A stretch of 64,000 nucleotides of DNA from Tubulanus polymorphus (Eukaryota > Nemertea > Palaeonemertea > Tubulaniformes > Tubulanidae): NCBI RefSeq assembly GCF_964204645.1, contig NW_027437443.1, positions 1 to 64,000 of the forward strand, written 5' to 3'. The position numbers were made by a program, and so were the translations under genes. Position 1 is the stretch's first letter. The number at the start of each line of letters is the position of its first letter. Shown here one piece after another: positions 20,601 through 23,600 of the stretch. Below the pieces are notes generated by a model. It was not told the origin of the DNA and searched no databases. It worked only from the letters and a program-made list of their open reading frames with translations.

Positions 20601-23600
20601 GCTAACTTGTTCGATTTTTATGACATGCATTATCCGGGTCTATAGATACAGCTTATTTACACATATACAATTCCGGGGAGTCAGACGATTAAGATTTAAA
20701 TGCCCTCGATGCAATATTATGATCCTGGTCAAATGTTCCTCAATGTTCCTAATGTAAAGGCCTACAAAGATTGTTCTTATATTGCAGGTTTTTACTGACT
20801 TTTTCTTGTTCTTAAAATTTTACTTGTACCACAGCAGTGAATGAATAAGGCTACATCAATGCCTATTAAAACATAAAGGACTGGTTCTACAGATCTAACA
20901 GTTTGATTTTAAGTTACAGGGTGGCCACTATTAGACTTGCTTTCCTGGACTTTTGCCTGACATGCTTGTTGTTTTCCCTGACTTGATCAGCTAAGAATCC
21001 CATCAAATCCAATGTCAAATACGTAAGACATAGACGGAAATTGTTTGATTTAATGTGCGATCAAGCAATCTCAACAAATTTCCATGACTTTTCCCTGAAT
21101 TTTAACTTTTATACAAAATTCCCTGACTATTACCTAACTTTTCTAAGAGAAAAGAAAATTTCCTGGCTTTTCCCTGATTGCCAGGTTAGTGGCCACCCTG
21201 AATTAGTTCATTTTCAATGAATTCACCCCGTAACACTGCAACACATCACAACTAGAACTGGACCCTGCTGTATACATCTTCTAGTAAATATTCTTACCTT
21301 CACTGCACGGCACTTCTTCAACCTGTCCAGGTTCAACGTGTTGTCCTTCGACGATTCGTAACTCCTCTTGCGATCCGACGTCCGATTGATTCGCGCTGTA
21401 TTTGATTCCCTTGAATCCGGATTTCTGGAAATGATATTGAATAGCTGGGTATGTTGACACCTGCAACAGCATCAAACGGGACAACAAACTGTTTACATGC
21501 ATTAAGTGCCACTATCTATAACTACTCAACATACATTCGGATTGATTTCATCAATTACTCGATGTATTCTAAAATAAAGCTTTAATGTAAATATTTAATT
21601 CTTACCTTATTGAAATAATCGTCGTCATTGAAACAGATCTTTGCGTTACCGGACTGCCGCACTCCTGGTGGAGTCTCCTCATTTTCTGTAAACAAAAGTA
21701 ATTTTTTTCCTTATTAATCTAGCTTACGATATCAACGCATTATCTTATGTTTTTATCATATTTCTATCAGTCTTACCTGTGACAACTTGTACGGACACTC
21801 GTAAATAGCCTTTAACATCACCCTTTTCACTAACTATCGTTACCCTGTGCACTAACTGTACAGGATAAAACAAATTGCTCAAGTACACAAACGCTCTACA
21901 AAAGACAACCACCATTTCATCACAACAAGTTCAGATTCAATGATAAACAAATATTTTCTTACAAAATATTGAAATTCAAAAGTAAAGATCTTTTTGGCGA
22001 AATTATGATACGATTCGATTGTATGCTGTTATTTAGTTTTGTTTGGTTTCACTGTTTTTGATTTATTTGTAACTTAAGGTATTCATGTTTTTTCTTTGAA
22101 TTTTATTTCCTTGCGTTCTTTAAACCTTTACCTATCTTTCTACCTTTTTTTGTATGAATTGATACGATAAATAAATAAAATCAAGATCCTTCACAATTAA
22201 GTATTATCTAAATAGTTTTTTCAGAGAAAGCCGCACCACGCGCGCACTCACCTGCCAACCAATCTGAACCAGGGGAACCGGTCATAAAAGGGGTCGCCAC
22301 CGGTCATGCTGTCAATATCGGGCTCAGGAGACGTAGGCGACAGTTCGGCTTCATTGTGGTACATTTCACGCATCAGTTCTAGACGTTGTCTGTAATAAGT
22401 AACGACAACAACATAAATAACAAATGAAAACAAACTTTAGTAACACAGTCTGCAACTCTTTGTGGCACATCAAGATCTTCGCATAAACTGGGTCCATGTG
22501 AAGCCATGCAGAGGAGACTTTTAAGTAGGTTTTTCAAATTTCACATATTTCACAAACAAAAAAATTATTTTTGACGAATAGATGGATCTAAAGAATTTTT
22601 TACAGTTACTAAAGATAGCTGGATTCAGATATTACATTCGTCAGCTCCTCATACATCGAGATATCAAACAAAACAGAATCAATAAAGTAGAGCATTTTAG
22701 GGACGAAAAATATACAACGCTATCAACAAAAATACAAACAGTTTCAACACAGCCACGCGGTCTGAAGAGTTCACACTTCTAGATAACGCACATCTAGGAA
22801 TAGTAATAAATGGAGCCATTTTAATATATTTGTTCTGATATTCAACGTTTTCGTGAATATATTCAGAACGCAATGAATCAGATGTGCGCCCCAAGCAGAT
22901 TCTTACGATAAAATAAGCAGTTGCATAATGCAACTCTATTCCAATTACCGGTATTGAAAATACAACAGCCACATTTACGTCGATATTTTCTAAATTAAGA
23001 GTTTCTTGCCCGATTGAATTTAACTGATTCTGAATTAAATTCGAGAAAGAAGTATCTAATGATTCAGATTTCTGCGACCACGCCTAAACTTCTAGAATCT
23101 GCTTGATAAGCACTAGTGCTCTGAACATGCATGAATTTTTCCGGTGATTTTGCGAGAAGTTTAAGGCAGGTTGTACAGCGCGTGTCGAGCTGCGCAACCT
23201 GCCTTTTCGAATTTCGAGAAATATATAAAAATGATACTGACACGACTACGGGCACACACCTTGACGGTATCAAATTATAGAAGTTAAACACATTCGGATT
23301 ACTACACGAAGCCAAACACTGAAAGAAATTATCTTGCGCCTGTTCCGGAGTCTGGGGAGACAGGTCTTCGTTATAAATCCGCCGCATGAGTTCCAATCGT
23401 TGTCTGAGTGTGTGCGAGGTGGAGAAAAAACAAGAGAGACAAAAATAACGTCAACCGTAAGAAGAGACCGATGATGCGGTAATAATGGGCTCATTTTCTT
23501 GAAAGTATAGAGCATAGTCTTATATATCCGGTATATATTTGAAATGTTTAAAAGAAATCAGCTTTTGTAATAGAACAGATATCAGTTATGAAATTAATAA

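What the first reader, a model, noticed from the sequence alone, without database searches (positions are those of the whole stretch)
22252..23403. Tandem-duplicated, probably mutually exclusive exons in KIF1
Exon A (22389-22252) and exon B (23403-23260) share QRLELMR and an SP-T-P motif and have identical entry and exit phases, but diverge fully at the C-terminal end: A gives the conserved [18 protein letters not shown] gives [16 protein letters not shown]. Both stay open and both have good splice sites, so B looks maintained. It would swap a 46-48 residue segment in the middle of the tail, just before AFVYLSNL, giving two motor isoforms. I know of no such pair in vertebrate KIF1A.
Basis: partly seen in the sequence, partly recalled or inferred. 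Interest (0 to 1): 0.7.

Follow-up and report, generated by a model that had tools for sequence, protein, structure and literature searches.

The report
Duplicated alternative exon in KIF1 kinesin
An animal gene for KIF1, a motor that carries cargo along microtubules, appears to hold two alternative versions of one exon, and the swapped piece aligns with the part of a related motor that locks it in its off state, so splicing might tune how easily the motor switches on.

Summary
Exon A (22389-22252) and exon B (23403-23260) lie in a KIF1-type kinesin-3 gene, open and with identical phases. Their first 25 aligned codons are homologous (0 of 20,000 shuffles), with saturated synonymous and low non-synonymous change: an old duplicate still under protein constraint. 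They are the two best of 30 open, phase-compatible AG-GT pairs locally. With three of four gap settings no other candidate in the window reaches 10% of exon A's self-score; B has 20-24%.

B's second half has no detectable homology to A and intron-like codon composition, so it may be newly recruited sequence.

Exon A covers the Pfam KIF1B family. By alignment to the KLP-6 structure it holds the MBS alpha3 helix, which packs on the motor switches in the autoinhibited state, and the DPFY loop. B keeps the helix start, has R for E at one contact, and lacks DPFY. I propose that splicing swaps an autoinhibition or adaptor surface.

Mutual exclusivity is not shown: double inclusion is in frame, and no RNA or relatives were available. 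Three UGCAUG sites and a 17-nt exon-intron complementarity give a weakly supported regulatory model.

The parts
22252..22389 (-). Exon A: canonical KIF1B/MBS exon (46 codons), [46 protein letters not shown]
   Evidence: Pfam PF12423 positions 2-46 of 46, 62.1 bits; best splice pair; one match in G000
23260..23403 (-). Exon B: duplicated alternative exon (48 codons), [48 protein letters not shown]
   Evidence: Homology to A; second-best splice pair; PF12423 only 16.0 bits, under cut-off 22.2; the only strong match to exon B in G000 is this locus
24798..25039 (-). Common upstream exon (ends ..HYWSLEKLQ); its start is inferred
   Evidence: Open frame, donor ACA|GTGAGT, rank 5 of 183 GT sites
21777..21895 (-). 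Common downstream exon ([39 protein letters not shown])
   Evidence: In frame after either exon
23163..23205 (-). Stable RNA hairpin 54 nt downstream of exon B's donor
   Evidence: 20-nt arms, 85% complementary; 105-nt fold z -3.27, 1 of 200 shuffles as good; only this locus found in G000
23905..23921 (-). Intron element complementary to exon B 23381-23397 (94% of 17 nt); contains UGCAUG
   Evidence: pair I24; 1 of 60 shuffles of the intron reach it; the larger duplex of this intron with B's 3' splice region has z -3.42, 0 of 60, best of 12 region pairs tested
23381..23397 (-). Exon B segment that could pair with 23905-23921
23914..23919 (-). UGCAUG (RBFOX-type) motif 510 nt upstream of exon B
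23126..23131 (-). UGCAUG motif 128 nt downstream of exon B's donor
22505..22510 (-). UGCAUG motif 115 nt upstream of exon A's acceptor

Best explanation
The gene is a KIF1-type kinesin-3 motor. Its exon for the Pfam KIF1B segment (the alpha3 helix plus the DPFY loop of the MBS domain) was duplicated in tandem long ago. Both copies remain usable exons, and alternative splicing most likely puts one or the other into the mRNA. Exon A gives the family-standard MBS. Exon B keeps the start of the helix and two S/T-P sites but replaces the rest, without DPFY and with less negative charge. The product would be a motor whose MBS-to-motor lock, or adaptor docking surface, differs; my specific guess is a more easily activated or differently recruited motor. 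Probable choice mechanism: RBFOX-type factors at UGCAUG sites (downstream of B, upstream of A) favouring B and disfavouring A, with RNA pairing over exon B as a second layer. Shown: homology, constraint on the first half, splice-site quality, phase, position relative to Pfam and to KLP-6. Inferred: actual splicing, exclusivity, regulation, effect on the motor. My step estimates: B is a real alternative coding exon 0.8; mainly exclusive use 0.6; effect on autoinhibition or adaptor binding 0.45; RBFOX control 0.25. The confidence below is for a real, mainly exclusive alternative exon.
For: Gene identity: kinesin motor, Kinesin_assoc, FHA, DUF3694 and PH matches over cut-off. Homology of the first halves: 0 of 20,000 shuffles. 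Constraint: 16 of 25 aligned residues identical, nucleotide differences 5/6/18 at codon positions 1/2/3 (P 0.0014), pS 0.94 (saturated) against dN 0.28; if B alone decayed neutrally by 0.5 substitutions per site, identity this high has P 0.003. Splice pairs ranked 1 and 2 of 30. Published MXE search criteria met: 19.7-33.6% of self-score by gap setting against a 15% threshold, with no other candidate at 10% in three of four settings. Position: exon A spans PF12423 2-46 of 46; alignment to KLP-6 7WRG maps R662, E668 and Y690, described in PMC9314371 as MBS-to-motor contacts; R662A is one of the interface mutations tested there, most of which restored activity, and it is not among the named exceptions. 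UGCAUG: 3 in the three introns, 0.72 expected, P 0.036. An RBFOX-like RRM is found in G000 as two matches on C4 (42 residues at 74%, 29 at 62%).
Against: Exon B's codon composition is weak: -0.06 bits per codon overall, +0.26 in the first 25 codons but -0.42 in the last 22; 398 of 2,232 open intronic windows score as high, and all 26 known exon blocks score higher (lowest 0.064), though those blocks were also the training set. The second half has no detectable homology to A. No transcripts or related species were available. B+A double inclusion keeps the frame. UGCAUG is not enriched in the window as a whole (32 found, 33.2 expected), 120 of 716 distinct hexamers occur at least twice in the intron between B and A, and these regulatory tests were chosen after looking. 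The pairing was the best of 12 region pairs; another pair (exon A's donor region with the B-A intron) had z -2.85, 1 of 60. KLP-6 is a distant kinesin-3 (E 0.15 for the hit), so residue mapping is by alignment only.
Confidence: 0.6

Rival explanations
1. Exon B is a relic: an old duplicate of exon A that is no longer spliced in and is decaying.
For: Second half has no homology and intron-like codon composition; no expression evidence could be obtained.
Against: First-half protein conservation with saturated synonymous change; 48 codons open; splice pair second of 30.
Confidence: 0.12
2. Exon B is used, but not mutually exclusively: a cassette exon sometimes spliced together with A, which would lengthen the MBS by 48 residues.
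For: Both exons are multiples of three and B+A is open; the 870-nt spacing and ordinary GT-AG sites give no steric or spliceosome-type barrier to double splicing.
Against: Double inclusion would duplicate the MBS helix, structurally unlikely (inference); the pair meets the published MXE criteria, and on the Drosophila X chromosome 90 of 16,180 non-exclusive exons share those features (PMC3228551 passage).
Confidence: 0.15
3. Exon B is a chimera: only the first half derives from exon A, and the second half is intron sequence recruited through a new donor, giving a truly new segment. This concerns origin and is compatible with the best explanation.
For: Change in homology and in codon score between codons 1-25 and 26-47.
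Against: Equal exit phase and nearly equal length (48 against 46 codons), as expected of a full duplication followed by divergence.
Confidence: 0.3
4. Exon B is an alternative last exon of a short isoform (as mammalian KIF1B short isoforms have their own terminal exon).
For: The frame stays open 64 codons past the donor; mammalian KIF1B short isoforms have a unique 3' terminal exon (PMC2636774 passages).
Against: Donor AAG|GTGTGT ranks 3 of 183 GT sites; no AATAAA in the B-A intron, one ATTAAA at 22825.
Confidence: 0.05

Closest known systems
C. elegans unc-32 exons 7a/7b and egl-15 exons 5A/5B (PMC3585155; abstract and passages read)
   Same: Pairs of alternative exons in animal genes whose choice involves RBFOX proteins at intronic UGCAUG; in egl-15 the site lies upstream of the repressed exon 5B, as one does here upstream of exon A.
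   Different: Different genes; regulation there is shown by genetics and binding assays, here only motif positions are known.
Kinesin-3 KLP-6 MBS autoinhibition (PMC9314371; abstract, passages and sections 13 and 14 read)
   Same: The segment encoded by exon A aligns with the MBS alpha3 helix and DPFY loop that contact the motor domain.
   Different: The passages and sections that I read describe no splice variants; here the segment would be exchangeable by splicing.
KIF13B MBS with the DLG guanylate-kinase domain (chain 5b64_B; passages in PMC9314371)
   Same: 5b64_B is the best sequence match among solved structures to the upstream exon + A + downstream exon (E 9.1e-05).
   Different: A different kinesin-3 subfamily with a known partner; the partner here is unknown.
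C. elegans unc-104 neuron-specific microexon (PMC12084633; passages read)
   Same: Alternative splicing of the KIF1A orthologue that changes the protein in selected neurons.
   Different: Adds 7 residues in the motor domain; not a duplicated exon and not the MBS.
Mammalian KIF1B short and long isoforms (PMC2636774; passages read)
   Same: KIF1-family splicing that alters the tail.
   Different: Alternative 3' end replacing the whole tail, not exchange of one homologous exon.

Membership tests
Mutually exclusive exon pair | Similar length (published search default: within 20 aa) | tested here: met
   46 and 48 codons; criterion from PMC3228551
Mutually exclusive exon pair | Same splice-site pattern and reading phase, no in-frame stop | tested here: met
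   Both AG..GT, same entry and exit phase, open
Mutually exclusive exon pair | Sequence similarity (at least 15% of self-score) | tested here: met
   19.7-33.6% by gap setting; 0 of 1,238 other candidates at 10% in three settings, 2 at 15% in the laxest. The similarity lies in the first half only
Mutually exclusive exon pair | Transcripts contain one or the other but not both | not testable with these tools
   No RNA data; double inclusion would be in frame
KIF1 (kinesin-3) gene | Motor, Kinesin_assoc, FHA, KIF1B segment, DUF3694 and PH in order | tested here: met
   exon pieces in gene order on the minus strand
Pfam KIF1B segment (PF12423), exon A | Score over cut-off 22.2 bits | tested here: met
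   62.1 bits, positions 2-46 of 46
Pfam KIF1B segment (PF12423), exon B | Score over cut-off 22.2 bits | tested here: not met
   16.0 bits, positions 2-23 only; not among the 7 matches of the genome search at E up to 1
RBFOX-regulated exon | UGCAUG in flanking introns | tested here: inconclusive
   3 found, 0.72 expected, P 0.036, chosen after looking; no excess in the window
Docking/selector RNA-paired exon cluster | Competing base pairings, conserved between species | tested here: inconclusive
   One 17-nt pairing (94%) for exon B only; no relatives to test conservation

The most novel reading that the evidence does not exclude
A splice-controlled lock in a KIF1 motor: exon B makes an isoform whose MBS cannot form the usual grip on the motor switches, so the cell sets its pool of easily activated motors, or changes the adaptor, by splicing, with an RBFOX-type factor switching both exons at once.
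Probability: 0.2. Interest if true: 0.68.

Novelty: new member of a known kind. Interest (0 to 1): 0.45.

Why it matters
Kinesin-3 autoinhibition is usually discussed (general knowledge, and PMC9314371 passages) as something relieved by cargo, adaptors or dimerisation. A natural pair of isoforms that differ only in the MBS helix and DPFY loop would be a ready-made experiment on what this segment does in KIF1, and would show splicing as another way to set motor activity. Exon pairs like this are a well-known kind; a pair at this place in a kinesin-3 was not seen in my paper searches with kinesin-3, unc-104, KIF1 and exon terms. These cover only open-licence PMC papers, and I saw the listings in part: 0 found, all 19, all 3, the top 20 of 38, the top 20 of 2,694, the top 12 of 395.

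Tried and rejected
Searches for exon B in prokaryote contigs and viral contigs found no relative (126 and 14 pattern matches, none confirmed); these collections are not expected to hold animal genes, so this says nothing about conservation. A COX1 family search and a mollusc haemocyanin family search, meant to place the organism, found nothing (the second rang in no control genome and is uninformative); the species stays unidentified. A Fox-1_C family search found nothing and rang in no control; an RBFOX RRM query did find a likely gene. I tested whether B's second half is a frame-shifted copy of A's second half: no sign of it. I looked for further duplicated exons by comparing minus-strand open frames with each other (E up to 0.05): the A/B pair is the only one in which I recognise both frames as KIF1 exons; the other matches are repeats, short or weak. 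KIF1C residues 714-809 (PTPN21- and Hook3-binding; PMC12152161 and PMC6775250 passages) were considered as the equivalent surface but not used, because PMC9314371 says KIF1C lacks the MBS and MATH domains. A bacterial promoter/terminator scan of the B-A intron and a tRNA scan gave nothing useful.

Full report
What is there. The window is the first 64,000 bases of a 117,738-base contig in a 267.8-Mb, 77-contig genome. On its minus strand, from about 36 kb down to 10.6 kb, lies a KIF1-type kinesin-3 gene: pieces of its exons match the kinesin motor, Kinesin_assoc, FHA, DUF3694 and PH families over cut-off, in that order along the gene. Exon A and exon B sit between a common upstream exon ending at 24798 and a common downstream exon starting at 21895. 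Both have the same entry and exit phase; A gives 46 residues and B 48; A, B, or B followed by A all read through. Exon A matches the genome once; the only strong match to exon B is its own locus, the other being a weak hit (E 0.21) on the KIF13-like gene that covers mostly the downstream exon.

Is it more than chance? Protein similarity of A and B: local score 60, not reached by any of 20,000 shuffles. It comes from the first 25 aligned codons: 16 identical residues, two single-residue gaps. In this stretch 18 of 29 nucleotide differences are at third positions (P 0.0014), 6 of 7 fourfold-degenerate codons for identical residues differ at the third base, synonymous sites are saturated (pS 0.94) and dN is 0.28. 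If B had decayed neutrally by 0.5 substitutions per site, at least 16 identities would be seen with P 0.003; by 0.3, with P 0.16; by 0.2, with P 0.58. So the conclusion rests on the saturation of synonymous sites, which implies a large distance. Scoring all AG-GT pairs of 90-240 nt that are open in the required phase in 24850-21700 puts A first (12.09) and B second (9.73) of 30, the third (4.13) being an overlapping version of A. Taken alone, B's donor ranks 3 of 183 and its acceptor 3 of 139; A's rank 1 and 5; the acceptor of the downstream exon ranks only 26, so the acceptor score is a blunt tool (matrices recalled). With the criteria of a published search for mutually exclusive exons (length within 20 aa, same splice pattern and frame, at least 15% of self-score; PMC3228551, passages), B reaches 19.7-33.6% depending on gap costs. 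Of 650 minus-strand and 608 plus-strand candidates in the window, 637 and 601 do not overlap A or B. In three gap settings none of these reaches 10% (best 6.4%); in the laxest 17 do, 2 of them over 15%, best 16.2% against 33.6% for B.

What speaks against it. The second half of B is not recognisably related to A (5,541 of 20,000 shuffles as good) or to a small kinesin-3 profile (469 of 3,000), and shows no sign of being a frame-shifted copy. A codon-usage score trained on 1,509 codons of this window gives B -0.06 bits per codon: +0.26 for the first 25 codons, -0.42 for the last 22. Exon A scores +0.17 and 26 known exon blocks (which are also the training set) range from 0.064 to 0.887, while 398 of 2,232 open intronic windows score at least as high as B. 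This can mean relaxed or fast evolution, or that the second half was recruited from intron sequence; it does not fit ordinary conservation along the whole exon.

What the exon encodes. Exon A covers positions 2-46 of the 46-position Pfam family KIF1B at 62.1 bits; exon B matches only positions 2-23 at 16.0 bits, below the cut-off of 22.2. Among sequences of solved structures, the upstream exon + A + downstream exon match KIF13B chain 5b64_B (E 9.1e-05) and, weakly, full-length C. elegans KLP-6, 7wrg_A (E 0.15); B with the downstream exon, a shorter query, matches nothing up to E 10. I counted KLP-6 residues along the alignment and they agree with the residue names in the paper. On this count R662 aligns with the first R of QRLELMR (kept in A and B), E668 with the E of REMY in A but R in B, and Y690 with the Y of DPFY, absent in B. 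PMC9314371 (abstract, passages, sections 13 and 14 read) reports that the MBS alpha3 helix packs on Switch I and II of the motor, and that R658, N661, R662 and the backbone of Y690, with E671, D675, E678 and E668, make MBS-to-motor contacts. Most of the interface mutations tested there, R662A among them, restored activity, the named exceptions being E564A (slight) and F698Q (little effect). It also says that the KIF13B MBS was reported to bind DLG for release of inhibition. Exon A has 9 acidic and 5 basic residues, B has 5 and 4. In the four other kinesin-3 loci whose second half I read (L008, L009, L011, L012) DPF[YW] is present, as in A; exon B lacks it. One further family match, on C7 and below cut-off, was not cut out, and L010 covers only the first half of the KIF13-like gene's segment.

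How it may work. If B is used, the isoform keeps the start of the lock helix and two proline-directed S/T sites (LSPx(S/T)PE) but has a base for an acid at one contact, less acidic charge and another sequence in place of the DPFY loop. The plain prediction is a weaker or different MBS-to-motor lock, or a different adaptor surface. This is inference from one distant structure.

How a choice could be made. Frame does not enforce exclusion and the exons are 870 nt apart with ordinary splice sites. Three UGCAUG sites lie in the flanking introns: 510 nt upstream of B, 128 nt downstream of B and 115 nt upstream of A (0.72 expected in the three introns, P 0.036). Against this, the window as a whole has no excess (32 found, 33.2 expected) and 120 of 716 distinct hexamers occur at least twice in the B-A intron. 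RBFOX proteins act through such sites in C. elegans unc-32 and egl-15, in the latter by repressing exon 5B from the upstream intron (PMC3585155, abstract and passages). An RBFOX-like RRM is encoded in this genome. A 17-nt intron element is 94% complementary to the start of exon B (1 of 60 shuffles); the larger duplex of that intron with B's 3' splice region has z -3.42 (0 of 60), the best of 12 region pairs, another reaching z -2.85. The element contains the upstream UGCAUG. A hairpin found only at this locus stands 54 nt after B's donor. All of this is one-genome evidence gathered after looking, and I weigh it lightly.

Comparison and novelty. Tandem duplicated, mutually exclusive exons are a known kind. 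My paper searches showed no report of such a pair in a kinesin-3 (the listings were seen only in part, and most subscription papers are not in the library). KIF1-family splicing that I did see differs: an unannotated microexon in the unc-104 motor domain (PMC12084633, passages) and the terminal exon of short KIF1B isoforms (PMC2636774, passages). I file this as a new member of a known kind, with an unusual and testable location.

Noticed in passing
window 19983-20202, minus strand: A full-length U3 snoRNA match (158.8 bits) lies in an intron of the KIF1 gene, on the same strand; G000 has two more strong matches, on C10 and C1, and three weaker ones.
   Followed up: partly
window 23163-23205, minus strand: GC-rich hairpin just downstream of exon B's donor, found only at this locus; might be a splicing element or a small-RNA precursor.
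   Followed up: partly
window 55421-56935 and 59621-59704, minus strand: A MePCE-like methyltransferase gene upstream of KIF1 (name recalled; Pfam shows a methyltransferase domain). A 19-residue stretch of its long frame is repeated at 74% identity in a short frame 2.7 kb upstream, possibly another duplicated segment.
   Followed up: no
window 34356-34739: A 63-bp tandem repeat, 6.1 copies, lies between two motor-domain exons of KIF1.
   Followed up: no
window 40589-40805: A 15-bp tandem repeat, 14.2 copies, with open frames on both strands.
   Followed up: no
L009 and L010 (G000 C8:11825100-11830248): In the KIF13-like gene the region matching exon A is split: the helix part and the DPFY part match in frames about 2 kb apart, unlike KIF1 where one exon holds both.
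   Followed up: no
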